Virus record (IMG/VR): IMGVR_UViG_3300035698_002641 | Location: 1-30,659 of that record | Strand: one strand, 5' to 3' | DNA: 30,659 nt | DNA from: a virus | Part shown: piece after piece, positions 430-17,831 of the stretch | How positions within the stretch are numbered: position 1 is the stretch's first letter | Layout: every line of letters begins with the position of its first letter | Translations under genes and position numbers: made by a program | Notes under the pieces: model-generated | What the model was told of the DNA's origin: nothing | What the model saw: only the letters and a program-made list of their open reading frames with translations | Databases searched by the model: none

Positions 430-433
430 ACTA

Positions 434-1701: not shown

Positions 1702-1737
1702 ATTAACCTTTTACATCTAAAATATACTTATTTGGGC

Positions 1738-2112: not shown

Positions 2113-2137
2113 ATTTTTCCTTATTATGATAGCATAT

Positions 2138-2145
2138 TATTTATA
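2138..2145 (-). promoter_or_regulatory. T4-type late promoter for the cupin-glycosyltransferase pair
   Basis: TATAAATA on the minus strand is the T4 late consensus. It lies 26 nt upstream of the cupin ATG, leaving room for a short leader with AAGGAA. Confidence 0.6.
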
Positions 2146-2148
2146 AGA

Positions 2149-2156
2149 AATAAATA
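2149..2156 (+). promoter_or_regulatory. T4-type late promoter for plus-strand glycosyltransferase
   Basis: AATAAATA on the plus strand is one mismatch from the late consensus. It lies 20 nt upstream of the TTG start at 2176, with AGGAGA in between. It sits 3 nt from the opposing minus-strand element, making a compact divergent promoter pair. Confidence 0.5.
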
Positions 2157-2175
2157 TATTCATAGGAGAACAACA

Positions 2176-3530: not shown

Positions 3531-4503
3531 GTATATACCTCGATGCGGTTTTCCAGGTGCTAGGCTCGCACCAATCGTAGTTTGCCATTTTTTCAAAAAT
3601 GCCTTTGGCTAATTGACTTGTTAACACGTTAGGAATTATATAATCCTTGATCTCTCTCGTTAATTCCGGAGATACTTGTATGGTACTGCTATGCACATTA
3701 ATTGTTGTAGGTTGTTTGCTATATCTGCAATACCAGTATTCTAAGTGCATGACAAATTGCAACATTATAAAATCACTCGAAGCTATAATAAGACTGCGTT
3801 TAGTAGCCTGAGGAGTAACTAACAATTCCGGATATTGATCAAATGATTCTAATCGTACTATGCCCGCGCCGCCATAGTCTGTCCATTTCACATTTCCTTT
3901 ATCGTCTTTCATATAATTTAAGTCACTAAATCCTAGATCCCAGATGCACATCTCAGTGTTAGCCAATAGCCATTTATTTGTTAGCGCGATTTCAATTGTA
4001 TCTTTGTAAAATGCCTCTAGGTTACGTTCTGCAGGAGTATATGTATCATGGTCATTGCTAATCGGCCGATACATAAAATCAGATTTGACAATCCATTTGT
4101 CAAACGCAACATGAGTCTTTACGCCAATCTTTCCTAATCTTGCAAATTCACTCATTATCATTTTTGCATGATGGTAATAATCTTTGCCATATTGTTTGAA
4201 CACTTTAACTAGATAATATTCATCCGGATTTTGATACTTATGACCGATACATGCATATCCGTCTTTGCCATACCCCAAATTCTCTGTAATATTGAATCCA
4301 TATGCTGCCCTAATGTAGGTCCGACCTTCTATCACCTCTGCAATAACTGGGCGTAAATCTTGACATTGAATAGCCTGCAGGCAAACGTCTGGGCGATCCA
4401 AATTATTCCGAATATGAAGTACAGTTTCTTCATTGCAGTTATCTATCCCCGGAACATCGTTAATGCTTTCAAAATATTTAATTCGGGTTGGTTTGTTTTT
4501 CAT
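3517..4503 (-). CDS. Protein-kinase-fold (sugar or lipid kinase-like) protein
   Basis: The start at 4503 (MKNKPTRIKYFES) is chosen over 4521 because GGAAAG sits about 6 nt upstream. In 328 residues there is a glycine-rich loop (LGYGKDGYACIGHKY, about 77-90), an ATP-contacting lysine (YYLVKVFKQY, Lys100), a catalytic-loop-like segment WDLGFSDLNYM (Asp189, Asn196) and a metal-binding Asp in WTDYGGAG (Asp209). These match the eukaryotic-like kinase fold shared by aminoglycoside, LPS and sugar kinases. With the overlapping methyltransferase gene it resembles a split version of a WbdD-type kinase/methyltransferase that caps O-antigen chains. That functional reading is inference; the fold call is moderately strong. 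Confidence 0.6.
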   Translation of the reverse strand: MKNKPTRIKYFESINDVPGIDNCNEETVLHIRNNLDRPDVCLQAIQCQDLRPVIAEVIEGRTYIRAAYGFNITENLGYGKDGYACIGHKYQNPDEYYLVKVFKQYGKDYYHHAKMIMSEFARLGKIGVKTHVAFDKWIVKSDFMYRPISNDHDTYTPAERNLEAFYKDTIEIALTNKWLLANTEMCIWDLGFSDLNYMKDDKGNVKWTDYGGAGIVRLESFDQYPELLVTPQATKRSLIIASSDFIMLQFVMHLEYWYCRYSKQPTTINVHSSTIQVSPELTREIKDYIIPNVLTSQLAKGIFEKMANYDWCEPSTWKTASRYIHDHT

Positions 4504-5389
4504 CGATATCTTTCCATGCATATCCAGAACGAATCTCGGATATGGTATATTGGCTATTGCTTAACCAATTAACTAAATCTTGTCTAGCCGGTTCCTTATC
4601 AAGCAATGGTGATTGTATTCCTTCTGCTAAATCGCCAATAACAAACCTAATAGGAAAACAACAAGAATGTTGATTGACTATTACCGGAATGCCTCTAAGT
4701 GTAGCAGTCAATGCAATTATACTATTGTACGCTATTACACAACCAGAAGATTGCAAATCTTCTTCAAGTGGACATGATGGTTTATTCTTTGCAACTCTAA
4801 TTAGGTTTCCTAATTTGTCTACTATAGGTTCATTGGGTTTTGATCTAACTATGACTTGTTCAAATTCATCTGCGGGTAACACTTCTTTTAAGTTATGCAA
4901 TATTTTCTCTGTCCAATTATGTGCATTAAAATACCAAGCTACTGCGTTTGTTGGAGGGCAGATTAGGATTTTCTTACTTCGTTGTGTGCCTGTCTTCCAT
5001 GGCTTCATAGTATAATTCTCTATAAAATTCTGTGTAAATCTAGAAGAATCTATAGTATCCAGCCACGACATGCTATGATGATTTTTAGTGATTCGGAGCC
5101 ATGCATTAGGACTATACCCGGCATTGAAATAAGCGTGATCGACGTAAAATCTATCGATGCCTCGAGAAGCTGCGGTTTGTAACATAGTACCTGTGCCACG
5201 TAAGATGCCTAATGTAGCAACTGCGTCAACGTCTTCTGGAATTCCGTATTTTATAAAATGTTCTATAGGATAATGTAATACCTCTGATGTTGGCGACGCA
5301 ATCCTAGCACCAGCAGCAAACACTTCTGTAATCTCTGACGTTAATGCCCGACCTGTTCCATAGACTACAAGCTTTTTATAATCTGCCAT
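4478..5389 (-). CDS. Capsule-synthesis-like (KpsC/KpsS-type) protein, paralogue 1
   Basis: The protein has 303 residues. The N-terminal half starts as a nucleotide-binding-like strand (KKLVVYGTGRALTSE). The C-terminal half carries the pattern of capsule polysaccharide synthesis proteins: VIVRSKPNEP, then an aspartate-leading segment, CVIAYNSIIALTATLRGIPVIV, and a tail with SEIRSGYAWKDI. The NS...A...GIPV block is the typical acceptor/donor cleft of Kdo-transferase-like GT-B enzymes. The C-terminal half is clearly related to 5365-6204 and more weakly to 13458-14327. It overlaps the upstream paralogue by 25 nt and the downstream kinase-like gene by 26 nt, so these are translationally coupled. 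The exact reaction is unknown. Confidence 0.6.
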   Translation of the reverse strand: MADYKKLVVYGTGRALTSEITEVFAAGARIASPTSEVLHYPIEHFIKYGIPEDVDAVATLGILRGTGTMLQTAASRGIDRFYVDHAYFNAGYSPNAWLRITKNHHSMSWLDTIDSSRFTQNFIENYTMKPWKTGTQRSKKILICPPTNAVAWYFNAHNWTEKILHNLKEVLPADEFEQVIVRSKPNEPIVDKLGNLIRVAKNKPSCPLEEDLQSSGCVIAYNSIIALTATLRGIPVIVNQHSCCFPIRFVIGDLAEGIQSPLLDKEPARQDLVNWLSNSQYTISEIRSGYAWKDIDEKQTNPN

Positions 5390-6204
5390 GCAACCCCCGA
5401 TTCTATTTCTTCATGGGTGAATTGTCGATTAGCTAGTAGGTTAATGTGATCGTTTATTACAGCTAACGGATATGGATCCTCGCAATCAATATATTTAATA
5501 AAGGAATCCGAAGGATCGTGCGAACAGTAAACCGCTGATGATACGGGGCCAGTATAAACTACCTTTCTTGCAAGCAATGCATCGACGGCTACATTGCTAG
5601 CTAAAGTGTATACAATTGATACGCCGTCTAGATCTTCTTGCAATGTAGGGCCGGGGCCAACAGCATCTGGCCCCGAAGTGGTTTGATTACGAGGTTTACG
5701 CCGTATCCTGATCTTCTTATTTGTATGCGGTTCGATACGAAGAATGGATTTCGTAATCCATTCTTCTTCTGAAATGCCTTCTAGATATTGTGTTATATAA
5801 TTTGACGAACTAGCAATTAAAATATCTCCATGGATGTGATAAGAAGGTTCTTGCGCCTCAATGCCCATTTCTTGCCGACGGGTTTTGTCCTCGCCCGCAT
5901 GAAAACAATTAACAAACGTATTATGAATAGAATTCTTGCTTACTCGCCAGTAAAACTTCTTGTCGGGTTCAAATTTAGAATACCGATGAAAATAAGGCAT
6001 GTCCCAAAAATACCACGTAACCCCCTCATCAATATGCTGTTGTATAATTTCTCTATTATTTTCGATAAATCCCCAAAACATACTGGGTTCGCCGGTGTAT
6101 TCTCTCTTTGTAACCATTTTTGCGCCTGGGATGCCTTTGAGAAGACTTTCCATGACCCAATTGCATTTACTCGCAGGGTTCTGTGTGTTCGGGTATAACC
6201 ACAT
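5365..6204 (-). CDS. Capsule-synthesis-like (KpsC/KpsS-type) protein, paralogue 2
   Basis: The protein has 279 residues. A GT-B-like C-terminal domain shows IRIRRKP, an aspartate-leading segment and VYTLASNVAVDALLARKVVYTGP, the SN...A...(G/R)KPV-like block of KpsC/KpsS-type proteins. It ends HEEIESGVAWQIIKSL, which parallels SEIRSGYAWKDI of the downstream paralogue. The N-terminal half (WLYPNTQNPASKCNWVMES) differs from paralogue 1, suggesting a different acceptor. The start follows the upstream fusion gene's stop by 6 nt. A sugar-transferase role in making a surface glycan is the best guess; sequence alone does not name the sugar. Confidence 0.55.
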   Translation of the reverse strand: MWLYPNTQNPASKCNWVMESLLKGIPGAKMVTKREYTGEPSMFWGFIENNREIIQQHIDEGVTWYFWDMPYFHRYSKFEPDKKFYWRVSKNSIHNTFVNCFHAGEDKTRRQEMGIEAQEPSYHIHGDILIASSSNYITQYLEGISEEEWITKSILRIEPHTNKKIRIRRKPRNQTTSGPDAVGPGPTLQEDLDGVSIVYTLASNVAVDALLARKVVYTGPVSSAVYCSHDPSDSFIKYIDCEDPYPLAVINDHINLLANRQFTHEEIESGVAWQIIKSL

Positions 6205-6210
6205 TTTGTA

Positions 6211-7581
6211 TTATTTTTCACCTTTGTAATGTGTTAAGAAATGGTCTAGGTCTTCTGGAGTTCCTATTCCCCACATTCCGGGAATCTCTTTAATTCTCAC
6301 TTTTCCGCCTCGTGCTATAAGTTCATTGAATGCTGGGCAGACGTAAAATTCCCCGTTGGTGCGAATGTTCTTTTCAATCATCTGTTCTACTGCCCATACA
6401 TAATCTTCACCTTTGCCCCAATAATAAATTCCGACTGTTGCGTTGGTACTGATTGGGTCTTTCTCTGCTACTAGATCAACCCAATTATCTTCATCTAACC
6501 TCGCATAACTCCATTTCGGATGTGTATTCGGAAACGTGATAATGCCGCCGTCGATGCCCTCTGTTGAAAATGCATACAGAACTTCATTGCTATTCCATTC
6601 TAAAAATTGATCACTATTTGCAATCAACAATGGTTCATCATTATCTATCAGTTCTTTTGCTAGCATTGTAGTACATGCTGCGCCCTCTGTCAATCCATTA
6701 GTTTGTATTATCGTGCAGCCAGGTTTGATCAGATTCAACACGGTTTCTAGATTGTATTTTTTGTAATGATCCTCTTGCACAATGAAGATATAATTAGCTT
6801 CGATGTTCAGATTTTCAACTACTACTTGGATCATTGGTTTCTGGTTAACTTCTATCAAGGGTTTCGGAAAAGTGTATCCTGCTTGTTGAAAACGAGAACC
6901 GGCGCCCGCCATTGGTATTAGTACATTCATCTTCTTATTTCTCCATGGAATAGAAGGCCTGCGCGAATTGCTTATTTCTTCTATTGTTAATTTAAGTTTT
7001 GCTAATGTTAGGTCTGCTGGATCTTTCACCGGGAGTAAATTACAACCGGCATTAATCACCGCTTGCCGACCTATATGACTGTCTTCGATAACTAACGTCT
7101 CCGAAGGGTTTGCGTCAGCTTTTAACATGCATTGAAAATACATCTCAAAATGAGGCTTGGATTTAACAACGTCTTGGTTGCTATACCAAAAGTCAAGATA
7201 TTCTATAATACCAAGTTGTAACAAACTCATCTTCACTGTATTGCGAACAGCGTTACTCGCACAAGCTATTGTATATCCTTGTTTCTTGAGATATCTCATC
7301 ATTTCAATTAATTTAGGATCTGCAGATATCTTCTCTTTCAATATTGTTATCGTGTGTGTTTGTTTTTCTGCTGCAATTGAAGAATGAGTCTCAATCGGCA
7401 ACCCTTTAGTCTTTGTTAACAATTTGAGCTTTTCGTTAGTAGGCAACCCATCGTATGTGCTTAGGTGTTCTTCGATTGGAATTTGGTATTCTTTGGGAAG
7501 CGCGCGATTCAAAGCAAGAAAATGTGTTTCTTTGCTTTCTATCAAAACCCCGTCTAGATCAAATATAATTAACTTGAGCAT
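6211..7581 (-). CDS. HAD phosphatase-sugar nucleotidyltransferase fusion
   Basis: The protein has 456 residues in two domains. Residues 1-210 are a HAD hydrolase of the phosphoglucomutase/phosphatase type: motif I FDLDGV with Asp8 and Asp10, a motif II serine in ACASNA, a lysine in VKSKPHFEMY and the acidic motif IEDSHIG (Glu166, Asp167). Residues 218-456 are a nucleotidyltransferase with MAGAGSRF (Gly225-Arg230 region), FPKPLIEV and ANSDQFLEW. Such enzymes make NDP-sugars from sugar-1-phosphates, so the fusion may dephosphorylate or isomerise and then activate one sugar. The second domain starts at an ATG (6928-6930) with GGAG 10 nt upstream, so a separate nucleotidyltransferase chain may also be made. 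It overlaps the upstream GDPD-like gene by 13 nt. Confidence 0.8.
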   Translation of the reverse strand: MLKLIIFDLDGVLIESKETHFLALNRALPKEYQIPIEEHLSTYDGLPTNEKLKLLTKTKGLPIETHSSIAAEKQTHTITILKEKISADPKLIEMMRYLKKQGYTIACASNAVRNTVKMSLLQLGIIEYLDFWYSNQDVVKSKPHFEMYFQCMLKADANPSETLVIEDSHIGRQAVINAGCNLLPVKDPADLTLAKLKLTIEEISNSRRPSIPWRNKKMNVLIPMAGAGSRFQQAGYTFPKPLIEVNQKPMIQVVVENLNIEANYIFIVQEDHYKKYNLETVLNLIKPGCTIIQTNGLTEGAACTTMLAKELIDNDEPLLIANSDQFLEWNSNEVLYAFSTEGIDGGIITFPNTHPKWSYARLDEDNWVDLVAEKDPISTNATVGIYYWGKGEDYVWAVEQMIEKNIRTNGEFYVCPAFNELIARGGKVRIKEIPGMWGIGTPEDLDHFLTHYKGEK

Positions 7582-8033
7582 TTGCGTTTATACATCTCTA
7601 TATTATCGGAACAAATTCCACCAAAGGTACTTATATCTAAATTTGGGCTCTGTTCTGGTAAAACAGCGATAGTAGATGGTCCGCCAGGAAAGCCTGGGTA
7701 TGCCCAAATCCATTTCTTACTAGTAAGAGTGTATGCATCGTCTCCGTGATAGAAGACATTTGCATCAAAATTATCTATCATATATTGCAAGGCATCAAAG
7801 TTCTTTGCATGAAACCAACAGTAATCAATGTGTTCTAATATCCATGCATGGTCAACTTTATGAGTAGGTTCGTCGTGCCCAAAATAAAGTTGATCATTTT
7901 CTGGATATTTTCTAACATCTACTTCAACGTCATATCCCAGCCGGATCGCAACTTCTAAGTACGATGGATGATTTTCGATTTCTGTTACGTTTATTGGAAA
8001 CACTATATTTCCTCGATGGGCGATAAATTTCAT
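7569..8033 (-). CDS. Short glycerophosphodiester phosphodiesterase-like protein
   Basis: The 154-residue protein begins MKFIAHRGN and continues with DVEVDVRKYPENDQLYFGHDEP. The HRGN, the E-x-D pair and the later GHDEP match the active site of the GDPD/PI-PLC-like TIM barrel (His6-Arg7, Glu-x-Asp, His). Typical GDPD enzymes exceed 230 residues, so this is a compact or C-terminally reduced form. It could hydrolyse a glycerophosphoryl or phosphodiester linkage in the glycan path. AGGGAGA precedes the ATG, and TATAAATA lies about 30 nt upstream. It leads the minus-strand operon running down to 2853. Confidence 0.65.
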   Translation of the reverse strand: MKFIAHRGNIVFPINVTEIENHPSYLEVAIRLGYDVEVDVRKYPENDQLYFGHDEPTHKVDHAWILEHIDYCWFHAKNFDALQYMIDNFDANVFYHGDDAYTLTSKKWIWAYPGFPGGPSTIAVLPEQSPNLDISTFGGICSDNIEMYKRKCSS

Positions 8034-8064
8034 ATTTCTCCCTTACTAAATATCTCTATAGAGG

Positions 8065-8072
8065 TATTTATA
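8065..8072 (-). promoter_or_regulatory. T4-type late promoter for the GDPD-led operon
   Basis: A perfect TATAAATA on the minus strand lies 31 nt upstream of the ATG at 8033. AGGGAGA falls in the leader. Confidence 0.6.
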
Positions 8073-8076
8073 AATT
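8069..8076 (+). promoter_or_regulatory. Overlapping plus-strand late promoter for the GT61 gene
   Basis: TATAAATT on the plus strand shares its first four bases with the minus-strand element, so both directions are served by one 12-base AT-rich block. The ATG at 8100 has CAGGAG 9 nt upstream. Confidence 0.5.
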
Positions 8077-8099
8077 CTACAAAACAGGAGTTTTTTTTA

Positions 8100-9119
8100 A
8101 TGATTCGACAATACATGCAAGACAACATAGCACATTTTGAAGATGTCAGAATTTTCGATTTTCAAGATACTAAATTCTCAGAATTGATACAGGTAAAGAA
8201 TAATTATATTCCGTTGCACTTAGGAAAGAATGCAGCGAAAATCTACGATAAAGTTATAATCCCATCGAAAACAGGAACAGAACGAATAGACGGAAATTTC
8301 TATCTTTGGTACGGGACACCATTACACAATTATTACCATACTATCCTAGATGGATTAGGACAACTGTACTATTATCTAAAACTTAAAGAAGAAATTCCTT
8401 CTTTGCAATTGCTAATAAATGCGACACCTACTCCCAAGATCACACACTATCCGCCGTTTGTGTTTGAGTTGTTAGATCTGTTAGATATCGAGTACGAATT
8501 TACCACCGACGGATTTCTATACGAACATCTGTATTTCGGAGATACACTAGGACAGGATGCTACTGGTAAAAGAATTCATCCACATCCTGAATATTATCGG
8601 TTAATAGACAGGCTTATTTCTGTTGCTAAAAATAGATCACCTATGGATAAGATTGAGAAGATTTATCTTAGTAGAAGGACCCATGCAAATCCTCAATACA
8701 ATTCTTCTGTTATAGGCGAAGACAACACTCAAAAAAGAGGATTAATCAATGAAGATCAGGTTGTCGAAATTATGAATGATAATGGGTATACTGAGGTATT
8801 TGGAGAGAATTATACATTATCAGAAAAGATATCGTTGTTCTCGCAATGTGACAAATATGTGTCTGCCGCTGGAGCCGGCGTTACAAATATACTATGGTGC
8901 AAGGATAGAGAAGTTTCAATAGGAGGAATACATACCCCAGGATTTCCATTTCCGGGCAATGACCATACTAGGCATGTTTGCACTGCTCGACCAGAAGTCA
9001 AATGCACAATCAAAAACTACGATGGAACTGTATCGTATGTTAGCGTAGCCGAATCATATAACTCACCATGGAAGATAGATAATCTTGTCTATTTTTCAAA
9101 TTGGGTTATGGGAGTATAA
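8100..9119 (+). CDS. GT61-family glycosyltransferase (DUF563-type)
   Basis: The start at 8100 is set by CAGGAG upstream and by the promoter; the longer frame from 7968 crosses the promoter and the opposing gene. The 339-residue protein has the GT61 hallmarks: WYGTPLHNYYHTILDGLG (about 70-87), IYLSRR (about 188-193), the segment NEDQVVEIMNDNGYTEV, then VSAAGAGVTNILWC (254-267). GT61 enzymes include bacterial capsule and LPS transferases and plant xylosyl- or arabinosyltransferases. It is a lone plus-strand gene whose 3' end overlaps the opposing sulfotransferase gene by 31 nt. Donor and acceptor are unknown. Confidence 0.8.
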   Translation: MIRQYMQDNIAHFEDVRIFDFQDTKFSELIQVKNNYIPLHLGKNAAKIYDKVIIPSKTGTERIDGNFYLWYGTPLHNYYHTILDGLGQLYYYLKLKEEIPSLQLLINATPTPKITHYPPFVFELLDLLDIEYEFTTDGFLYEHLYFGDTLGQDATGKRIHPHPEYYRLIDRLISVAKNRSPMDKIEKIYLSRRTHANPQYNSSVIGEDNTQKRGLINEDQVVEIMNDNGYTEVFGENYTLSEKISLFSQCDKYVSAAGAGVTNILWCKDREVSIGGIHTPGFPFPGNDHTRHVCTARPEVKCTIKNYDGTVSYVSVAESYNSPWKIDNLVYFSNWVMGV

Positions 9120-9763
9120 CCCAGGATTTCAAAATCTTCTCTATGTACATCATTAATGTATAAGATAGATTCCTTTGTCAATTCATCTTGCCACTTAGTC
9201 TTCTTTGCAAAATTCTGCTTAAGGTGCAGTTGTTCTGCAGGATATCCTTGTGTTGTTAACCATTCGTTTAATTCCTGTAATTCTTCCATCTTGAACACTT
9301 TTATATCAGTGCATCCTTCTACATAATGATATTGCGAATGATAAATTTTGTCAGGTAATTGAAAATTCCAGGTCAATCCTCCGGTTGTTACGTCAAACTG
9401 TCTAATCCAACAAGGCAACCGATCGAGATTAAACAATGTGTTATTGATGCCCATGCTTTCCATAAGGTGAATACGTTCATGAAAAATCTCAATCGGCAAT
9501 CCTTTAGTCGAAAGCAATCCGTTCGCTCTTTTAGAATCCCATTCTAATTGATAGTGGTACCAAGAATGATATCTTTCATACGGATTTCTTGCAAGAGTAA
9601 ACCATTGTTCTGGTTCCTCGAGTATGCTAGTCGTAAAGCTACTATATGAGGTATGAGCATAGAAAATAGATCTAGCATCTGTTGGAAGGGATCTAAAAAC
9701 TGTAGTACCACCAGTTTTCGGAATATGAATGAATCCTAATTTGTTATCTTTAGTGAGAAACAT
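9089..9763 (-). CDS. Sulfotransferase family protein
   Basis: The 224-residue protein carries the PAPS-binding signature. The 5'-phosphosulfate loop is FIHIPKTGGTTVFRSL (residues 11-26). The 3'-phosphate site is RNPYERYHSWYHY (59-71), with the conserved arginine. This resembles carbohydrate sulfotransferases of the Sulfotransfer_2 group. It would move sulfate from PAPS to a hydroxyl of the glycan; no PAPS synthesis genes are present in the window, so the host would supply it. The ATG abuts the stop of the upstream methyltransferase (TGAATG), showing translational coupling as last gene of the 13459-9089 operon. Confidence 0.8.
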   Translation of the reverse strand: MFLTKDNKLGFIHIPKTGGTTVFRSLPTDARSIFYAHTSYSSFTTSILEEPEQWFTLARNPYERYHSWYHYQLEWDSKRANGLLSTKGLPIEIFHERIHLMESMGINNTLFNLDRLPCWIRQFDVTTGGLTWNFQLPDKIYHSQYHYVEGCTDIKVFKMEELQELNEWLTTQGYPAEQLHLKQNFAKKTKWQDELTKESILYINDVHREDFEILGYTPITQFEK

Positions 9764-10567
9764 TCAATACCTTGCGCTAGTGTGATTCGACTGTCTCATG
9801 TCAACATTTGTATCACTGTATTCAGTTCTTAGCCCATCAACAACATCATTTACGTATCTACCTTGCATCGGAACACGAAACGGTTGATCTGTTATCTTTC
9901 GATAAGCTGCTACTAAACTTACGTTTTGTGGTTTGTTGCCTGTTGCATTATGCAATTCTGTATATGCTTTTTCTAAAGTACTAGGCGGTGTTAATGCTTT
10001 CTTCTGTTCGTAAAATGCCCAATCATCTACAGGCAATTCTATATATTTTCCTGTATTTTGTGCTAACCAAAGAAATTGCCATTCGTATTGATTAGCTGCA
10101 ACAATGTCTCGAAATAAACAAGGATGGTAATTATAGAATCCATGATTAATCCATGGGCCAAAAGGCAATACACACAACATAGTGCCACCTACGTTACATA
10201 AGTTATGCATATTCTCAAATACAGTTCTTTGGTCAAATATGTGCTCACCTGTTCCGTTGTTTGTTACAAGATCAAATGTATCTGTATATTGATATTTGTC
10301 TGCTAGAATGAAATTCAAATCCATAGCAATACTTTTCAGCTCAGTGTTTATGTCGATTGCAAGGTAGTTGTTGTAGCCAATGTCTTCGAAGAATTCCCAA
10401 ACAAATTCAACAGGTTTTCTTATTGTCTTTCCGGATGCCTGTTGACATTTATCAATCCAGGCTTCATTATACCTAAATCGTTGGTTACCCCATTCAACAA
10501 CGCTACTCTCTGTTACATTTTGTGCAACTATAGAAGTCGCGAGTTGCATGATGTTGTTAAAAGCCAT
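9764..10567 (-). CDS. SAM-dependent methyltransferase-like protein
   Basis: The 267-residue protein has a class I methyltransferase outline: SVVEWGNQRF in place of motif I, an acidic strand-2 end (YLAIDINTELKSIAMDLNF), DLVTNNGTGEHIFDQ as motif IV and GGTMLCVLPFGPW as post-motif strand. The GxGxG of motif I is not evident, so SAM binding should be treated as likely rather than certain. It could methylate a sugar or an acyl group. The ATG overlaps the upstream fusion gene's stop by 1 nt (TAATG), and its own stop touches the sulfotransferase start. Confidence 0.6.
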   Translation of the reverse strand: MAFNNIMQLATSIVAQNVTESSVVEWGNQRFRYNEAWIDKCQQASGKTIRKPVEFVWEFFEDIGYNNYLAIDINTELKSIAMDLNFILADKYQYTDTFDLVTNNGTGEHIFDQRTVFENMHNLCNVGGTMLCVLPFGPWINHGFYNYHPCLFRDIVAANQYEWQFLWLAQNTGKYIELPVDDWAFYEQKKALTPPSTLEKAYTELHNATGNKPQNVSLVAAYRKITDQPFRVPMQGRYVNDVVDGLRTEYSDTNVDMRQSNHTSARY

Positions 10568-11799
10568 TAGGCCTTCCTAAAGACGTAATATTCGCGGCCA
10601 CCGCCTGCTCTTGCTGCGCCATGATCAAGTTGGGTAAACTTTTCAGAAAATGCTGTTATCATCTTATTTGTATGATCTTGGTTGTTTGGGCGATTATGTA
10701 ATTTCTGTGTTTCATGAATAACAATGCCATCGTCGTCTAATAAATCATGATAGCGTTCTACTATTTCTTCTTCAGTCAATCCGCCGAAATCTCTAAGCTG
10801 AATGCTTACAGCCAAACTCAGAATCACATTAAATTTATGATCAAACGGCTCATTCACCTTGTTCTCTTCTACAAACTCGTTAAACGTCTTCGTGTACCAG
10901 TGAACGTTACCTGGTTTATCGTCAGGCAACTCAACATGTGGCTCTATGCCGACAACCGATGAAACATGATCCGCTAGATTGCAACTAAAATAACCATCAT
11001 TGCATCCAATGTCTAGCATTCTTGTATCCTCTGACAACCACGAGAGTATCCCAATCTTCTTTATTCGATCTATAGCTTCGTCTTCTCCAAATCTCTTTTG
11101 ATAGTTCTTCCATTCGTTAACTATCTTCTTACTTGGTTCTGTAAATTCTTTCATACCGTTCCATACCTTTCTGGGATTCTCTAGTTTAATTGTATCAAAT
11201 TCTTCTTTGTTAACTAATTTAGCCATAAGTTCTGCTTCGTAACTTGGTCTAGGGTGTGTTAATGCTGCAATAATGCTTTTGCGAAAATGATCCGGGTTAT
11301 AATGCGAATACAGGAATCTCAGTCGTTCACTGCTCCTAGTCTCAACTTCACTTCCCACTGGATTTGCTAATTCAAAATCAATCAAAGATAATTCATTGTC
11401 GTCTATACAAAAATTACTCAATGGAAATTTTGCATATTTTTTCTTCTGGCTGTTTGGATCCATTCCTGGATAAAAATATTGTATATTGCTATCCTCAAGT
11501 ACATCACATATACGATGCGCCTGTTCTAAATATGCTGTTAAATCATGTTCCTGCCAGGAATAAAACAAGCTGTCGCCTTGGTTCGATAAAGCAATTCCCA
11601 TAATAGAGGCATCATGATCAATTAGCACAGGAAATCCTTCTTTTCCTTGTAATCGTGTTAAGCATTCAATTTCTCTATCGAATGAATCTTTGTATGACCC
11701 ACGTGCTGCTTTTACTGCTTTCTTCTTTACGTTAAAGACTTTTACAACCCTATTCGATTCTATAAAACAGCCACTTGTTTTGCCAGCAGCATATCTCAC
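10567..11799 (-). CDS. Kinase-like/methyltransferase fusion (WbdD-like domain pair)
   Basis: The protein has 410 residues. Residues 1 to about 200 look like a small kinase fold: NRVVKVFNVKKK (Lys20), a DREIECLTRL helix with Glu43, a catalytic-loop-like KFPLSNFCIDD and LSLIDFELA with Asp141 in the DFG position. Residues about 225-410 are a class I methyltransferase with MLDIGCNDGYFSCNLA (261-276), VVGIEPHVELP and a motif-IV-like FNVILSLAVSIQL. In WbdD of E. coli O9a a methyltransferase and a kinase together cap the O-antigen chain, though there the methyltransferase comes first. A chain-terminating role here is inference. Start and stop overlap neighbours by 4 and 1 nt. Confidence 0.65.
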   Translation of the reverse strand: MRYAAGKTSGCFIESNRVVKVFNVKKKAVKAARGSYKDSFDREIECLTRLQGKEGFPVLIDHDASIMGIALSNQGDSLFYSWQEHDLTAYLEQAHRICDVLEDSNIQYFYPGMDPNSQKKKYAKFPLSNFCIDDNELSLIDFELANPVGSEVETRSSERLRFLYSHYNPDHFRKSIIAALTHPRPSYEAELMAKLVNKEEFDTIKLENPRKVWNGMKEFTEPSKKIVNEWKNYQKRFGEDEAIDRIKKIGILSWLSEDTRMLDIGCNDGYFSCNLADHVSSVVGIEPHVELPDDKPGNVHWYTKTFNEFVEENKVNEPFDHKFNVILSLAVSIQLRDFGGLTEEEIVERYHDLLDDDGIVIHETQKLHNRPNNQDHTNKMITAFSEKFTQLDHGAARAGGGREYYVFRKA

Positions 11800-12569
11800 T
11801 TCTTTTCAATCACTTTCCACATACGACGACCATTGTTAAATTCTCCAATGATGTTGACGCTTCTCCTCGTTTGCACTGGTGTAATCCTAGGAGTTACACT
11901 ATGCACAGAATTGGGTACGTTTAGGAACATGCAGAATTGGTTCGGTTGATATTTCACAACCTTCGCAGGCCGAACCAATGAATCATCTACTTGTCTGCCC
12001 AATTTTTTATCTACTTCTTTAATATCAGCAATTGCCTCATGCAATCGAAAATCTCCGCCGATTGAAGAATCGTTATGCTTTTTCATATACAACAATCCTG
12101 CATATATTTCAACTGGATTGTCTAAATGGGGAGACCTAGTAGATATCTCAACTGGCTTATGCACAACAAATTGGCAATCTGTTACATATTCTGAACGCAT
12201 GAGCAAATGAGGTGCCGGAACTCCGCGGATTGAACAATTTCCTTCGACTAACTTCTCATACAATCCTGGGTAATATTCGTCTAGAGCAGGCTTAAACAAT
12301 GCATTGACTTCATTGAAGAATGCTCTACTCGTATGATATTCGAAGAATTCTTTCCACAAACTAGAATGATGATCTGTTTCAAAAAACATATCTGACTTGT
12401 ATCGATATGTAACGCCGTTGTCATGCGGTTCTGTCTTACAAATCTCTTCTTCTGGAAATGCTGCTTCTAACTCTAAATACAATTCTTTTGGTAATGCATT
12501 ATTGATCACAATATGAGGATAAGGATCCATTATAATTCCGTCTGCGTTTTGCAATACTGAAATATTCAT
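11796..12569 (-). CDS. 2OG-Fe(II) oxygenase
   Basis: The 257-residue protein has the iron triad of the 2-oxoglutarate dioxygenases: SPHLDNPVEIYAGLLYM gives His148 and Asp150, and PNSVHSVTP gives His223. A downstream arginine pair (TRRSVNI, 235-236) would bind 2-oxoglutarate. It resembles the prolyl-4-hydroxylase-like proteins common in T4-like cyanophages, which may hydroxylate proteins, sugars or lipids. N-terminal DPYPHIVINNALP is the usual entry to this fold. ATGA overlaps on both sides tie it to the glycosyltransferase before it and the kinase/methyltransferase after it. Confidence 0.8.
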   Translation of the reverse strand: MNISVLQNADGIIMDPYPHIVINNALPKELYLELEAAFPEEEICKTEPHDNGVTYRYKSDMFFETDHHSSLWKEFFEYHTSRAFFNEVNALFKPALDEYYPGLYEKLVEGNCSIRGVPAPHLLMRSEYVTDCQFVVHKPVEISTRSPHLDNPVEIYAGLLYMKKHNDSSIGGDFRLHEAIADIKEVDKKLGRQVDDSLVRPAKVVKYQPNQFCMFLNVPNSVHSVTPRITPVQTRRSVNIIGEFNNGRRMWKVIEKK

Positions 12570-13459
12570 ACCTTCTTAATTCCTTTGCTCTTTACTAATT
12601 GACTTGCGTCATATTCGTGTGGCTTCTTTTCTTTCTGAACTTTAATTTCAGCTTTGGTAATATTCTGCATATCCTGCCACCATGGATTCGACTCGTGTGA
12701 GAAATTTCCAATCAAATCATTCTTAAGGCTCTTGCCAACTTCTTTCCTAAACCCTTTGAGATGATCCATATATTTTCCTAAGACACTGTTAATAAAGATG
12801 TGTCCACTAGCAGAATCAGATCCCAGGTCGTTAAATTTTACACCAGCTGCTTTGTACTCTTGCACTAGCTCTCCAAAAATATAACTATCGTGTGTCTCAG
12901 TATGAGAGAATATATCATCACTAGTATAAATCCATTCCCACTTATCAACAAATTCTTTAAATTTGGGATGCGTTGTATTAAACATCATCCATCCACATTC
13001 TGGCCAAGTTGCTCGTCCTAGATAAGTCGCAAGCTCATCCTCTTTAGGCGCGATACTATGCAAAAATTCTATAGGCATATTTGTGTGCGTTCGAACATCA
13101 CCGTCACACCAGATCACTATATCATCTGTAGTGTTTCTAACATAATTCCAGATCGCATATGTCTTGTTTGCAAACCTAGAAGCATCCCACAAAAAGCTTT
13201 TCTTAGTTTTGTCTTTGTTCCACCCGTTTGCATGAGGATTGTCTTTGTGTTTTTCCTGCCATGCTCTTAATTCGGGCAATGTATTCGCTTGGTCAAGGAC
13301 TGTAATGCTTTCTAATCCTCTGTTATCCGGGGTGTGATTCTCGGCATAGATTGTTAATGGAACAGTCTTTGGCCAATTATTGACATATCCTTCTATGAAA
13401 TCTTTCCCATATTTTTCGTAGCCTGGAGGGTGCCAAGTAGTAAATACTGATATATTCAT
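12566..13459 (-). CDS. Glycosyltransferase-like protein with DGD motif
   Basis: The start at 13459 (MNISVFTTWHPPGYEKYG) is preferred to 13507 because the first strand begins there and a GTAAATA promoter-like element lies 5 nt upstream; the next gene also starts MNISV. The 297-residue protein has DIVIWCDGDVRTH (Asp119, Asp121) as a metal-binding DxD, preceded by FANKTYAIWNYVR and followed by GRATWPECGWMMFNTTHP, in keeping with a GT-A acceptor loop. A basic tail (IKVQKEKKPHEYD) ends the protein. It heads the five-gene minus-strand operon to 9089. Its ATG shares the palindrome CATG with the start of the plus-strand gene. Confidence 0.65.
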   Translation of the reverse strand: MNISVFTTWHPPGYEKYGKDFIEGYVNNWPKTVPLTIYAENHTPDNRGLESITVLDQANTLPELRAWQEKHKDNPHANGWNKDKTKKSFLWDASRFANKTYAIWNYVRNTTDDIVIWCDGDVRTHTNMPIEFLHSIAPKEDELATYLGRATWPECGWMMFNTTHPKFKEFVDKWEWIYTSDDIFSHTETHDSYIFGELVQEYKAAGVKFNDLGSDSASGHIFINSVLGKYMDHLKGFRKEVGKSLKNDLIGNFSHESNPWWQDMQNITKAEIKVQKEKKPHEYDASQLVKSKGIKKV

Positions 13460-13471
13460 GAAAGTATTTAC
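13440..13471. promoter_or_regulatory. Divergent late-promoter-like inverted repeat
   Basis: GTAAATACT (13440-13448) and AGTATTTAC (13463-13471) are exact inverted copies, 14 nt apart. Each reads GTAAATACT outward from the divergent gene pair's start region, close to the T4 late sequence TATAAATACT. The two ATG codons overlap at CATG between and beside the arms. A shared operator is an alternative reading. Confidence 0.45.
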
Positions 13472-14327
13472 CATGCTCATTTCTGTCTGGCCAGATAATT
13501 TACCCAATAACCATACTCTTGTATTTCCTCAATTAATTGACGAGATTTCAAAAACCGATACCATTGTTGAAAACTCTTACGACTGTGACGCTGCATTGAT
13601 TTGGAGCGTGTTGTGGAATGGAAAAATGTTGAAAAATAAAGCCGTTTGGGACCACTATAGAAAACAAGAAAAACCAGTCTTTGTGATTGAAGTTGGTGGA
13701 TTAAATCGAAATCTTTCTTGGAAACTAGCAGTCAATGGCATTGATTCTAACGCACAATATGGACTGGAACATGGCTACGACGGTGATAGAAGATGTAAAT
13801 TCGACATTCCTCTATCACCACTTCAAACCGGTGAGAATATCTTAATAGTTGGCCAACATCAGTTAAGCGAACAATGGAAGAATATGCCTGTTACCGAATT
13901 GTATTATAAGAAAATTGTTGATGGTATTCGACAGATTTCCGATGATCCTATATTAATTAGAAGCCATCCTAGATGGAAAGAGAATATACATTTTGAACTA
14001 ACTACTCCAGATTGGTTCTCACAACGAGATTGTCGTTTTGTTTCACCGACTCTAATTGCAGGATCATATGATTCTTTTGACTTTGATACAACGTTGCATA
14101 ACACAAAAGTTGTTGTTAATCATAACAGCAACACCGGCGTTCAGAGCTTAATAAAAGGCATTCCGATAATTGTAGATCCTAGTAGTATGGCCCACGAACA
14201 TTCTAGCAAATCTGTTAACGATCTAGTATTAGCTGATCGTGAAGATTGGATAAACAAGATTACTTATACGGAATGGTATGCAGATGAAATAGGCGTGCAA
14301 TGGAATCGTATACGATCCATGCTTTAG
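13458..14327 (+). CDS. Capsule-synthesis-like (KpsC/KpsS-type) protein, paralogue 3
   Basis: The protein has 289 residues. The start at 13458 gives a first beta strand (MKVFTMLISVWPDN); an alternative ATG lies at 13473. The C-terminal domain has ILIRSHPRWKEN, an FDFDTTLHN segment, and VVVNHNSNTGVQSLIKGIPIIVDPSS, the NS-x-x-G...GIP block of capsule polysaccharide synthesis proteins, then a W-rich tail. It is related to paralogues 1 and 2 of this cluster but lies alone on the opposite strand. Its TAG overlaps the uvsY stop by 4 nt, marking the border between glycan cluster and phage core. The sugar handled is unknown. Confidence 0.6.
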   Translation: MKVFTMLISVWPDNLPNNHTLVFPQLIDEISKTDTIVENSYDCDAALIWSVLWNGKMLKNKAVWDHYRKQEKPVFVIEVGGLNRNLSWKLAVNGIDSNAQYGLEHGYDGDRRCKFDIPLSPLQTGENILIVGQHQLSEQWKNMPVTELYYKKIVDGIRQISDDPILIRSHPRWKENIHFELTTPDWFSQRDCRFVSPTLIAGSYDSFDFDTTLHNTKVVVNHNSNTGVQSLIKGIPIIVDPSSMAHEHSSKSVNDLVLADREDWINKITYTEWYADEIGVQWNRIRSML

Positions 14328-14782
14328 ATTGAAGCATCTTCTAGCCCCGCTGTCCGTAACTTGGTTATGTGCCCTAGCATGAAATTTTTAGATTCGAGTC
14401 CTTTGATTACCCCCATCCATTTATTACGAAGTAGAGCTACTTCGTTGATCAAATGTGTGTACGCAATAACTTCATCTTCGGCGTCTGCATATTTTTCTGC
14501 GTCTCGCCCCGACAATGCCTTCGCATAGGTCTCAAGATATTTTCTATAATGCTTATTTCGAATCTTCCGTAGATTTATGTTCAGGAAATTCAAAACAGCT
14601 TCAACTTCTTGAAGTTGGTTAAATCGTTCTTCTGTGATACCAGGAAGCATAGAGAGATTTTTCTCTATGCTTCCTTTGATTGAAGTTTCTATCCTTGCAG
14701 CCTCTAATTCTTTTTCATAATAAGATATGAAATTTGGAATAAGAGAAAGATCAGATACAACCCGTTGGTACCACTGTGCCAT
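14324..14782 (-). CDS. uvsY: UvsY-like recombination mediator
   Basis: The 152-residue, largely helical protein ends GLESKNFMLGHITKLR, which parallels the C-terminal ALDAIKSRGFAIKHIQDMR of T4 UvsY. Length (T4: 137) and position, three genes after the uvsX pieces in the same operon, support the call. UvsY loads UvsX recombinase on gp32-coated ssDNA and acts in recombination-dependent replication. The ATG lies 3 nt after the stop of the small upstream gene. The similarity is partial, so the call rests on the tail motif and context together. Confidence 0.7.
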   Translation of the reverse strand: MAQWYQRVVSDLSLIPNFISYYEKELEAARIETSIKGSIEKNLSMLPGITEERFNQLQEVEAVLNFLNINLRKIRNKHYRKYLETYAKALSGRDAEKYADAEDEVIAYTHLINEVALLRNKWMGVIKGLESKNFMLGHITKLRTAGLEDASI

Positions 14783-14785
14783 ATG

Positions 14786-15013
14786 TTAGTCTTCTATTTC
14801 TTCTTCGGCTAGTTCGTCGTTTGTTTCTCCAGCAACATTATAAAGGTCTAGAGCATTGTCTAAGAATTCGTCTTCTCCCTTAATGTCGGCAAATGTGCCT
14901 TCATCGACTCCAACGTCAATCAAACTGCTTACAAAATTGTCAGCAGCGGGTTGTATGTCCTTGATATAACGAGACAATGTTCTCCATGATTCTAATATAA
15001 TCTCTGATAGCAT
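14786..15013 (-). CDS. Small acidic protein between uvsX and uvsY
   Basis: The 75-residue protein is strongly acidic, especially the C terminus (DELAEEEIED). It starts MLSEIILESWRTLSRYIKDI, a probable amphipathic helix. AAAGGA lies 7 nt upstream. It sits between the uvsX C-terminal gene and uvsY with short gaps, so it is probably co-expressed with recombination genes. I do not recognise a family; its acidity could fit a protein or ssDNA-binding-protein mimic role, but that is only a guess. Confidence 0.6.
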   Translation of the reverse strand: MLSEIILESWRTLSRYIKDIQPAADNFVSSLIDVGVDEGTFADIKGEDEFLDNALDLYNVAGETNDELAEEEIED

Positions 15014-15032
15014 GTTAATCCTTTCAATATAC

Positions 15033-15599
15033 TTAGTCTGTAATTTCTTCTGACACGTCGTTAATCATTTCTTCTATGTCAGTTTCGTCATCGCTAATTA
15101 TAGCATCTACTTGGTCTAGCGCCAATATATCAGCTGCAAGAACCTCGTTCATCACAACTAATAATTGTGCTGGTGTCCAGTTTTTGCGAAATTCTATAAT
15201 CTCCGTCCCATCCTTGCTAACGAACTTCAACCTGTTCCCGACCTTGGTTAAGATCTCTTTCTTCTCAAAAAGGTCAATAAGTCCACTTTCTGCCTGCATA
15301 CCATGGGCGTAAGGAATCTTCACCGAAACCGCTTCAAACGGTTTTGAGTAACGAGTCTTCATCACTTTGCACTTGGCACGAATGCCTCTAACATCACTTA
15401 TTTTATTGCCATCCTCGTCTTCTTTCAACTTTAATTTCTTCATTGCGATAACGATTGAGCTGGCATAGATAAATCCGCTGTTATGACTTACTATTCCATT
15501 CTCAAGTATATAATGATGGGCATCTGGCACACATATGTCATGTACTGTGTTCGTTCCCAGTGATTGTTTTTTTGCAATAGTGATTGGTTGTAATTTCAT
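15033..15599 (-). CDS. uvsX: UvsX C-terminal part with N-terminal C-intein (split gene)
   Basis: The protein has 188 residues. Residues 1-40 are a C-intein, with TVHDICVPDAHHYILENG and the terminal VSHN; residue 41 is Ser, the +1 nucleophile. Residues 41-188 are the C-terminal part of a UvsX/RecA-type recombinase, starting SGFIYASSIVIAMKKLKL and ending with an acidic tail as in T4 UvsX. The gene has its own ATG with GGAG 8 nt upstream and is in a different frame from the N-terminal gene, with a 199-nt spacer. It is thus a separate cistron rather than a sequencing break. Joined to the N-extein it would give a 368-residue recombinase (T4 UvsX: 391). Trans-splicing is required for a full-length enzyme. 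Confidence 0.85.
   Translation of the reverse strand: MKLQPITIAKKQSLGTNTVHDICVPDAHHYILENGIVSHNSGFIYASSIVIAMKKLKLKEDEDGNKISDVRGIRAKCKVMKTRYSKPFEAVSVKIPYAHGMQAESGLIDLFEKKEILTKVGNRLKFVSKDGTEIIEFRKNWTPAQLLVVMNEVLAADILALDQVDAIISDDETDIEEMINDVSEEITD
15480..15599 (-). other. C-intein (40 residues) of split uvsX intein
   Basis: Codons 1-40 carry intein blocks F and G: VHDI-x-VPDAHHYILENG, then IVSHN with the terminal Asn, followed by Ser. The length matches the 35-40 residue C-inteins of known naturally split inteins. Confidence 0.85.
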
Positions 15600-15762
15600 C
15601 GATTTTCTCCATAATATAAGTTAGTTTATCTAATTTGTTGGCTGACTCCCGGCCAACAATGGTCTCAATACCCCTGCTTTTTAATAAGCATTTTTGTTTC
15701 TCATGATCCTTTTGCCATATGTCACTAGCTCTTAATTGTGACTGTTTGTGAAAATATTCAGC
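15600..15762 (-). pseudogene. Probable remnant of an EDxHD/VSR-type homing endonuclease in the uvsX spacer
   Basis: An open frame, entered after a TAA at 15763-15765 and lacking a start, reads AEYFHKQSQLRASDIWQKDH, then EKQKCLLKSRGIETIVGRES and KLDKLTYIMEKID. The order D...K...L...GI...I..E is that of the last strands of VSR-like homing nucleases; compare KTKMCDDIGLRLIHIWEHDW in the intact endonuclease at 27592-29214. The catalytic residues would lie upstream and are absent. In fractured phage genes described from metagenomes, a free-standing endonuclease of this family sits exactly between split-intein halves. The reading is inference from one short frame. Confidence 0.4.
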
Positions 15763-15798
15763 TTAGCAAAAAAGAAGATTTGCGGTGGCCAAAGCTAA

Positions 15799-16743
15799 TC
15801 AATTACATACTTGTAATATCGAATCTCCATCATTTAATTCCGAAACCGTTTTCCACTCATGGGTTCCATTACTAGATTCTACTAAAAATTTATGCTCTCC
15901 TGTTGCTTGAATAATCTCACCATTTTCTAATATAAGTTCAAATATTTCCTTATCTTCATACTTAAATGTCTCTGATACAGCAATGTCGCCATCTAGAGTA
16001 ATCACAATATCGCCTATGTTAATATCCTCGATATTCTTAGTCGTCTGGTCTGCCATTACTATCTTGTGACCTGCTGTTAAACAACCGCCGGAAATTTTAT
16101 CGTCTGGATCAAACATATCCTGGCTTGCATAAGTATGGTTTGTGCAGACCATGCCTACATTATAAGATCCGAACATGTTTACACAATTTCGAACCAAGGA
16201 AGTTAATGCCTTAGGTTTCCGTCCCATATCACCCTTCATATCACCCTTGTTAAACTGGTCAATATCTGTGGGTGTTAACAGCATTCCTAGACTGTCGATA
16301 ACAAACAATACCTTTGGTCTCTCCTCGGCGGGCATTTCCTTATAATCTTTCATGAAAGTAGATATTGTCTTTGCTACATTGTCTACCATCGCCATAGACA
16401 ACTTTAGAAGTTTGCTTTCATCTGTATCAACACCTAGCCGCTGTAGCCAATCTTCATCAAGTGCATTTTCACTATCAATTAAGACTACGAATATTCCCTG
16501 TTCTTGTGCATTCTTTACAATATTGCCAGCGCAGAAATAACTCTTACCACTTCCGCTCTCGCCGGCGAAGACTGTTACTTTACCAAGCGGAATTCCTTTA
16601 AAGAAATCTCCACTAACAAGATAGTTTAGAGCATAATTGCCAGTTGATATCCAATCTGTGGGATCATGAAATCCTATGCTTAATCCATCGATACTCTTAG
16701 TAATATCTTTTCTAAATTTTGAAATGTCAAACGGTCTAGACAT
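15799..16743 (-). CDS. uvsX: UvsX N-terminal part with C-terminal N-intein (split gene)
   Basis: The protein has 314 residues. Residues 1-220 are the recombinase core: Walker A GESGSGKS (61-68), VVLIDSENAL (87-95), Walker B VLFVIDSLG (145-153) and the TNHTYASQDMF segment (201-211) that matches T4 UvsX INHTYETQEMF. At Gly220 the recombinase stops and an N-intein begins at Cys221 (CLTAGHKIVM). It runs 94 residues to a TGA. The break lies at KISGG^SGFIY, the glycine-rich ssDNA-contacting loop region of RecA-type proteins (T4: GGGTGPMYSA). AAGGAGAA lies upstream of the ATG. UvsX catalyses strand exchange in replication and repair. Confidence 0.9.
   Translation of the reverse strand: MSRPFDISKFRKDITKSIDGLSIGFHDPTDWISTGNYALNYLVSGDFFKGIPLGKVTVFAGESGSGKSYFCAGNIVKNAQEQGIFVVLIDSENALDEDWLQRLGVDTDESKLLKLSMAMVDNVAKTISTFMKDYKEMPAEERPKVLFVIDSLGMLLTPTDIDQFNKGDMKGDMGRKPKALTSLVRNCVNMFGSYNVGMVCTNHTYASQDMFDPDDKISGGCLTAGHKIVMADQTTKNIEDINIGDIVITLDGDIAVSETFKYEDKEIFELILENGEIIQATGEHKFLVESSNGTHEWKTVSELNDGDSILQVCN
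15802..16083 (-). other. N-intein (94 residues) of split uvsX intein
   Basis: Codons 221-314 of the N-terminal gene: block A CLTAGHKIVM with catalytic Cys, block B ATGEHKFLV with the TxxH-type pair, then WKTVSELNDGDSIL before the stop. The length is close to that of other naturally split phage N-inteins. No endonuclease domain is present. Confidence 0.85.
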
Positions 16744-16767
16744 TGGTTCTCCTTATGAGTCAGTTAG

Positions 16768-16773
16768 ATTATA
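16768..16773 (-). promoter_or_regulatory. Sigma70-like -10 box upstream of uvsX
   Basis: TATAAT on the minus strand (GGACTATAATC) lies about 25 nt upstream of the uvsX ATG, with AAGGAG in the leader. No clear -35 or MotA box was found, so use by a phage-modified polymerase is possible. Confidence 0.4.
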
Positions 16774-16816
16774 GTCCAACTGCTTTGATTTGATTATTTT
16801 AATTAATGTGAAAGGG

Positions 16817-16848
16817 TATTGGGGCGATGATCTCTCATCGCCCCAATA
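16817..16848 (-). terminator. Strong stem-loop terminator after gp32
   Basis: A perfect 14-bp inverted repeat (left arm 16817-16830, right arm 16835-16848, 4-nt loop) starts 5 nt beyond the gp32 stop. The arms contain GGGGCGATGA/TCATCGCCCC, unusually GC-rich for this genome. The following T run is weak (CCCTTT), so it may act partly as an mRNA 3'-end stabiliser. Confidence 0.7.
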
Positions 16849-16853
16849 AAGAC

Positions 16854-17831
16854 TTACGTCTCTTGACGCTTTCTTCGGATGACAGCCAGAATATTTTCTG
16901 CAGTCTGCGCCTTCTTATCTTCAACAACTGGTGCAACTGTCTCTGTTGCAACCGGTAGCTCTGTTGAAACTGTAGGCTCTACCGGATCAGCAGTTGACGT
17001 TTGTGTAACAACTGGCGTAACTGGTGCCTTAGTTGCATCGTTGTCTTTTCTCTCCATCCCGTATGGACGATAATACTGCCCATACTTGCTTTCGTCATAT
17101 GGTTCACCGTTAACCGAATCATTAAACATCTGTTCAATTATCGATACACGAATAGCATCTGGTTCATCTGGTAGGAAAGATCTCAAATCACTTAGTCCGT
17201 GAGTGTTAATCGCTTCCTTCTGTGATTTTAGTATACTCGTTTCTTTTCTTGCCCATTTTGAGGTAGAGTAACTTGCGTATTGCCCATTATTAGTCTTTGA
17301 TATACGGAAGTCTAATCCCTTATCAAAATCTGTAGGCATTTCTTCAAGCTCGGGATCTAGCAGCGCGCTCTTAATTATGTCAAATATACTCTTTGTCATA
17401 ACAAACCGTCGAATTGGATTCTCTGGTTCTTTTTCGTCTGCAATAGAATTTTCGTTAACAAACCCCTGGAAGATATAACTGCGTTTCTTCCAATACTTTC
17501 GTCCCATCTCTTCTAATGAAGGATCCTTAAACCAACCGCGAACTTCTCGTAACACTGGACAATCCTTGCCATACATTTCCATGCATGGAACTTGAATTGT
17601 CATAGGCTTCGAATTCGGATCGCCTTTGACTCCGGTAAATGGTAGTTTGATAACCAAACGCTCTACCCAGAAAAACGTGTTAGAATCATTGCCATCTGGT
17701 AGAAAGCGAATAACTGCTGTCTGTCCTTCGGGCATATTCCAATGTGGGTAAATTGCGTTGTCTAGGGTCTGTCCGCCTGCGCGGTCGTCCTGTTGTTTTA
17801 GCTTCTCTCGTATTTCTGCTAATGTTGCCAT
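16854..17831 (-). CDS. 32: Single-stranded DNA-binding protein gp32
   Basis: The protein has 325 residues. The N terminus has a basic KLKQQ helix as in the self-association (LAST) region of T4 gp32. A core OB-fold segment follows (VIRFLPDGND, FFWVERLVIKLPF), with a zinc-binding-like VPCMEMYGKDCPVL (Cys83, Cys91). Then GWFKDPSLEEMGRKYWKKRSY and SYIFQGFV match gp32 homologues of marine T4-like phages. The C-terminal 80 residues are a Pro/Thr/Val linker and a tail that ends in a basic AVIRRKRQET rather than the usual acidic end. gp32 coats ssDNA in replication and works with UvsX and UvsY. The gene is bounded by the terminator at 16817 and a leader with a late promoter. Confidence 0.85.
   Translation of the reverse strand: MATLAEIREKLKQQDDRAGGQTLDNAIYPHWNMPEGQTAVIRFLPDGNDSNTFFWVERLVIKLPFTGVKGDPNSKPMTIQVPCMEMYGKDCPVLREVRGWFKDPSLEEMGRKYWKKRSYIFQGFVNENSIADEKEPENPIRRFVMTKSIFDIIKSALLDPELEEMPTDFDKGLDFRISKTNNGQYASYSTSKWARKETSILKSQKEAINTHGLSDLRSFLPDEPDAIRVSIIEQMFNDSVNGEPYDESKYGQYYRPYGMERKDNDATKAPVTPVVTQTSTADPVEPTVSTELPVATETVAPVVEDKKAQTAENILAVIRRKRQET

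What the first reader, a model, noticed from the sequence alone, without database searches (positions are those of the whole stretch)
15033..16743. uvsX recombinase gene fractured into two cistrons by a canonical split intein
Seen: the first gene ends in an N-intein (Cys221, block A CLTAGHKIVM, block B ATGEHKFLV) and a TGA. The second gene has its own GGAG and ATG, starts with a 40-residue C-intein ending VSHN, then Ser. The two frames differ and a 199-nt spacer separates them. Known: naturally split inteins in phage replication genes have been reported from metagenomes. Inference: phage recombination and replication depend on protein trans-splicing to rebuild a 368-residue UvsX.
Basis: partly seen in the sequence, partly recalled or inferred. 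Interest (0 to 1): 0.9.

Follow-up and report, generated by a model that had tools for sequence, protein, structure and literature searches.

The report
Phage recombinase gene split by intein
A phage's DNA-recombination gene is broken into two genes whose protein products carry matching halves of a self-splicing protein (an intein) and should be stitched together after translation; this is a known kind of arrangement, but the gap between the halves still holds the dead remains of the homing endonuclease that probably once helped the insert spread.

Summary
Window 15033-16743 (minus strand) holds uvsX as two cistrons: extein 1-220 plus a 94-aa N-intein, TGA, 199 nt, then a 40-aa C-intein and a 148-aa extein in another frame. 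Relatives with an uninterrupted gene show the empty site exactly there, so the insert is one 604-bp block. A contiguous relative models as a HINT fold (pLDDT 94.8) and both halves are under purifying selection. Trans-splicing is the best reading, though not shown by experiment. The arrangement is not new in kind. I found 34 distinct inteins at this UvsX site, 30 of them split, including in isolated phages (Yersinia TG1, Vibrio EniLVp02, Proteus Pm5461) where a homing endonuclease gene (HEG) lies between the halves and no intact uvsX was found. Near-identical cassettes in diverged uvsX genes show that intein and HEG move together, so the window is a late, HEG-dead stage of that cycle. Some relatives have uvsX in three cistrons, with two different split inteins.

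The parts
16084..16743 (-). uvsX N-extein, residues 1-220 (Walker A GESGSGKS, Walker B VLFVIDS), preceded by AAGGAGA
   Evidence: phrog_97 E 4.5e-54, Pfam RecA
15802..16083 (-). N-intein, 94 aa, Cys1, block B TGEH
   Evidence: Pfam Intein_splicing 36.0 bits over cut-off 35.8; 60% identity to split and contiguous inteins at the same site
15799..15801 (-). TGA stop that ends the first cistron
   Evidence: sequence
15600..15798 (-). 199-nt spacer
   Evidence: sequence; no Rfam match, fold z-score -1.2
15595..15762 (-). Fossil of the last ~56 codons of a Vsr-like homing endonuclease; catalytic motif missing
   Evidence: 47.4 bits, E 2.6e-15 to a profile of spacer HEGs; best of 1000 shuffles 8.0 bits; tblastn 48% over 54 aa, E 2e-12
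15607..15613 (-). Approximate ribosome-binding site (GGAGAAA) of the C-cistron, inside the HEG fossil
   Evidence: sequence; same place in HEG-bearing relatives
15480..15599 (-). C-intein, 40 aa, ends VSHN
   Evidence: 58-69% identity with flank to C-inteins at the same site
15033..15479 (-). uvsX C-extein, 148 aa starting SGFIYASS, with stop TAA
   Evidence: phrog_97 E 8e-13 and phrog_18112
14324..14782 (-). uvsY-like recombination mediator (context)
   Evidence: phrog_231 E 1.9e-12
16854..17831 (-). gp32-like single-strand DNA-binding protein (context)
   Evidence: phrog_1192 E 1.5e-57

Best explanation
A mobile intein block (604 bp here) sits in the uvsX recombinase gene of a tailed phage at the end of DNA-binding loop L2 (between G220 and S221 of the spliced protein; E. 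coli RecA TTGG|N). It codes for a canonically split class-1 intein: the 94-aa N-half ends the first cistron and the 40-aa C-half starts the second, each cistron having its own ribosome-binding site. The two polypeptides should associate through the intein halves and trans-splice (Cys1 acyl shift, transfer to Ser+1, Asn cyclisation) into one 368-residue UvsX that acts with the neighbouring SSB and UvsY. In relatives the gap holds a homing endonuclease gene (HEG), and the cassette N-intein/HEG/C-intein moves between phages as one unit. In the window the HEG is deleted down to its last ~56 codons, probably kept because they contain the C-cistron's ribosome-binding site. The allele should no longer home by itself, yet UvsX still depends on splicing. 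Shown: anatomy, empty site, HEG fossil, selection, horizontal movement in relatives, no other uvsX in complete relatives. Inferred: that splicing occurs, why the fossil was kept, and loss of mobility in the window.
For: Exact two-cistron anatomy with all splicing residues. Empty site in 78 of 80 relatives. Contiguous intein at the same site (L004, one 490-aa ORF) models with pLDDT 94.8 and matches solved inteins: NpuDnaB TM 0.85, gp41-1 TM 0.82, NpuDnaE TM 0.82. Purifying selection on both halves of the window intein where dS is not saturated: dN/dS 0.12-0.20 (N) and 0.21-0.36 (C). Same split site in 30 distinct inteins and three complete isolates, where a UvsX profile finds only the two halves (plus weak helicase hits). 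HEG fossil in the spacer. Cassette 99% identical in L125 and L126 while flanking exteins are 79% and 76%.
Against: No splicing experiment. The window is a fragment, so another uvsX cannot be excluded. The C-intein alone is below the Pfam cut-off (E 0.18). The PHROGs library does not recognise the HEG fossil.
Confidence: 0.9

Rival explanations
1. Gene in pieces without splicing: the two halves associate non-covalently into a working UvsX, as reported for split NrdA of phage Aeh1 and split gp43 of phage 25, and the intein halves are inert relics.
For: Such unspliced split phage enzymes exist (PMC2988022).
Against: Both intein halves keep every catalytic residue and are under purifying selection; contiguous inteins at the same site keep the same residues. 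A 94-aa tail would otherwise hang from the L2 DNA-binding loop.
Confidence: 0.05
2. uvsX is a dying pseudogene in this phage and another recombinase, or a second uvsX outside the fragment, does the work.
For: The record is incomplete (30.7 kb); the spacer HEG has decayed.
Against: Both exteins and both intein halves are open and constrained, Walker A and B are intact, gp32-uvsX-uvsY order is kept, and complete relatives have no second uvsX.
Confidence: 0.03
3. Assembly or sequencing artefact: a contiguous intein or an intein-less gene broken by errors or chimeric joining.
For: Metagenomic contig; no reads available here.
Against: The gap has stops in all frames, contains a HEG fossil shared in kind with independent contigs, and the same architecture occurs in separate metagenomes and complete isolates.
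Confidence: 0.01

Closest known systems
Fractured genes: split inteins with homing endonucleases between the halves (Dassa et al. 2009, NAR 37:2560; cited by held papers, text not held)
   Same: Phage-type replication/recombination gene in two cistrons, canonical split site, short C-intein, HEG of Vsr-like type in the gap of relatives
   Different: Host gene is uvsX at the L2 loop; in the window the HEG is only a fossil. Whether this allele is listed there could not be checked
uvsX of Yersinia phage TG1, Vibrio phage EniLVp02 and Proteus phage Pm5461 (complete isolates)
   Same: uvsX in two annotated CDS with N- and C-intein halves at the same codon
   Different: Intact GIY-YIG/NUMOD3-type HEG in the gap, Thr instead of Ser at +1, 35-45% N-intein identity; the records' product names do not mention an intein
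gp41-1 split intein (PDB 6qaz, 6riz)
   Same: HINT fold, phage replication gene, fast canonical split type; Foldseek TM 0.82 to the L004 model
   Different: About 25% identity; different host gene and insertion site
Pyrococcus horikoshii RadA mini-intein (PMC5790916)
   Same: Intein in a RecA-family recombinase, HEG lost; splicing there responds to ssDNA
   Different: Contiguous, inserted in the P-loop; the window's P-loop is empty. ssDNA control was not tested here

Membership tests
Class-1 intein (HINT domain) | Cys/Ser at intein position 1, block B TxxH, C-terminal His-Asn, Cys/Ser/Thr at +1 | tested here: met
   C1, TGEH, HN, S+1
Class-1 intein (HINT domain) | HINT fold | tested here: met
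   Model of the contiguous homologue L004, pLDDT 94.8, best matches all inteins or intein-like domains; the window's two halves could not be folded together
Naturally split intein | N- and C-halves on separate ORFs with their own starts, split at the usual endonuclease position | tested here: met
   Frames differ, TGA then ATG with RBS; split falls at residue 92/93 of the L004 model between strands 88-91 and 96-115
Naturally split intein | Trans-splicing activity | not testable with these tools
   Needs co-expression
Fractured gene with intervening HEG | Homing endonuclease gene between the halves | tested here: not met
   No intact HEG in the window; only a 3' fossil without the catalytic motif. 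Intact HEG present in relatives
UvsX recombinase | RecA-type ATPase core across both exteins, with uvsY and gp32 nearby | tested here: met
   Joined exteins match PDB UvsX 9gbg E 7e-41 and RecA chains; uvsY and SSB neighbours
Vsr-like homing endonuclease (parent of the fossil) | Vsr nuclease fold and motif | tested here: inconclusive
   Only Vsr structures come up by sequence (E 0.06-0.5); Foldseek to 1vsr probability 0.99 but E 0.055; invariant GDYWH motif

The most novel reading that the evidence does not exclude
Splitting of this intein is one stage of a reversible cycle within a single gene: a split intein carrying a HEG spreads by homing, the HEG decays (window, L085, L120, L123), and the halves are sometimes re-fused into one gene (L004 group, L147). 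The cycle plays out in the very recombinase that phage homing requires, and trans-splicing may tie UvsX supply to infection stage.
Probability: 0.4. Interest if true: 0.6.

Novelty: new member of a known kind. Interest (0 to 1): 0.45.

Why it matters
One insertion site in one gene shows most stages of a split intein's life: empty, contiguous, split with an intact HEG, split with a decayed HEG, and (with a second site) a gene in three pieces. That makes questions about how split inteins arise, move and persist testable, and it supplies about 30 natural split inteins for protein engineering. UvsX is also a recombinase that phage intron homing depends on (PMC2988022), so the element parasitises its own mobility machinery.

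Tried and rejected
RNA-level explanations: no Rfam match in 14000-17500, spacer fold z-score -1.2. Promoter or terminator in the spacer: none convincing. Literature on a uvsX split intein: none found in the held library; Dassa 2009, Burton 2020, Aranko 2014, Carvajal-Vallejos 2012 and Bachmann 2015 are not held. Formal proof of re-fusion: the contiguous L004 intein nests inside split ones with good support (99/93, 98/89), but AU tests of the alternative give p 0.096 and 0.067, so it stays suggestive. PHROGs does not recognise the HEG fossil. The contiguous intein of L131 has a stop codon just upstream in the extein and is not relied on.

Full report
OBSERVATION. Every stated feature was found at the stated place. 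On the minus strand the first cistron (16743-15799) is 220 residues of UvsX followed by a 94-residue N-intein and TGA. After 199 nt the second cistron (15599-15033), with GGAG and ATG, starts with a 40-residue C-intein ending VSHN and continues SGFIYASS... for 148 residues. The frames differ and stops occur in all three frames of the gap. The N-cistron exceeds the Pfam cut-offs for RecA and Intein_splicing, both halves match phrog_97 UvsX, and the neighbours are a gp32-like SSB and a UvsY-like mediator.

EMPTY SITE. Of the first 80 viral contigs fetched with the C-cistron, 78 carry one uvsX frame in which extein residue 220 and the C-extein are adjacent. The insert is therefore a single 604-bp block. 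With the exteins joined, the site aligns with RecA TTGG|NALKFYAS, the end of loop L2 (loop assignment from general knowledge of RecA).

SAME SITE, MANY STATES. Scans with the intein halves brought in further loci, tabulated and reduced to 34 distinct inteins at this site: 30 split, 4 contiguous. Most split ones have a HEG in the gap: Vsr-like in L086, L111, L115, L116, L121, L125, L142; phrog_3339-type in L088; HNH in L096, L130, L153; GIY-YIG or NUMOD3 type in L099-L101 and L135. Some have short gaps: window 199, L003 67, L120 74, L123 164, L146 12 nt. Contiguous ones are the L004 group, L147, L131 and phage SCTP-2. Three split cases are complete isolate genomes (Yersinia TG1, Vibrio EniLVp02, Proteus Pm5461), in which a UvsX profile finds only the two halves, apart from weak hits that look like the replicative helicase in two of them.

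THE SPACER IS A FOSSIL. The third frame of the gap reads AEYFHKQSQLRASDIWQKDHEKQKCLLKSRGIETIVGRESANKLDKLTYIMEKIDE (15762-15595). A profile of eight HEGs taken from gaps at this site (window excluded) scores it 47.4 bits, E 2.6e-15; the best of 1000 dinucleotide shuffles in three frames was 8.0 bits. tblastn against 1.38 Mb of fetched loci hits only Vsr-like HEGs, 48% identity over 54 aa, E 2e-12, and still E 8e-12 with the last eight residues (the RBS-coding end) removed. The part lost includes the conserved nuclease motif (CVEFYGDYWHCNP). L085, L123 and L120 have fossils of other lengths at the same end (123, 36.5 and 21.6 bits). In HEG-bearing relatives the HEG frame overlaps the start of the C-cistron, so the RBS of the C-cistron lies inside its 3' end; this would explain why that end is the part kept (inference). 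The HEG's kinship with Vsr is likely but not proven.

MOBILITY. In L125 versus L126 the N-intein, the gap with HEG and the C-intein are 99% identical, while the flanking exteins are 79% and 76% identical; L125 versus L121 gives 92-98% against 70-79%. The cassette has moved recently as one unit between diverged phages. L120 carries the same cassette with about 960 nt of HEG deleted, a recent parallel of what happened in the window's ancestor.

FUNCTION. All catalytic residues are present. A contiguous relative gives a confident HINT model that matches solved inteins. Both halves in the window are under purifying selection in the comparisons where dS is not saturated. Trans-splicing to a 368-aa UvsX is the best explanation (0.9); it has not been shown experimentally. 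Whether ssDNA controls it, as for RadA of P. horikoshii (PMC5790916), is open.

EVOLUTION. In the intein tree the contiguous L004 intein nests among split ones (99/93, 98/89) and L147 nests with L133 and L148 (100/100), which suggests re-fusion; L004 even keeps a Met at the position of the C-cistron start. AU tests do not reject the alternative (p 0.096, 0.067). If right, it would qualify the usual view that split inteins derive from contiguous ones (PMC12707363).

NOVELTY. The kind is known: fractured genes with split inteins and intervening HEGs (Dassa et al. 2009, cited in held papers but not held). No held paper was found that describes a split intein in uvsX; I recall, unverified, that a uvsX split intein from Lake Vida has been named. 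The window is a new, HEG-less member. Interest 0.45.

Noticed in passing
L121:2391-6543 (L122 same); also L003:4480-6543, L088:4862-8409, L085:3692-6616: uvsX in three cistrons: a second, atypically split intein (N-half about 15 aa, C-half about 124 aa) at the Walker A motif (GxSG|SGKS) plus the canonical split intein at L2 (L085 ends before its C-half is complete). In L121 and L122 each gap holds its own Vsr-like HEG.
   Followed up: partly
L004:407-1879, L089-L095: Contiguous 132-aa intein at the window's site, nested among split ones in the tree and keeping a Met where split C-cistrons start: a possible natural re-fusion of a split intein.
   Followed up: partly
L157, L158, L159, L160, L161, L162, L154: Further uvsX intein insertion sites about 13-17 codons upstream of the window's site, mostly split; L154 seems to have two inteins in this region.
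   Followed up: no
window 27592-29214 (-): Intact 540-aa homing endonuclease (phrog_3339; DUF7487 and REase_MTES_1575 domains) between two tail-tube-like genes; 31% identical to the HEG inside the uvsX gap of L088.
   Followed up: partly
L098:2486-4471 (Salicola phage SCTP-2): One uvsX ORF with two contiguous inteins, at Walker A and at the L2 site; annotated as a hypothetical protein.
   Followed up: no
window 1-937 and 30285-30635: Proteins made of repeats of the type HREDGPAVI..GTEYWYLNG at both ends of the window, on opposite strands.
   Followed up: no
window 961-14327: Cluster of genes that look like sugar, nucleotidyl and methyl transferases, from reading the translations only.
   Followed up: no
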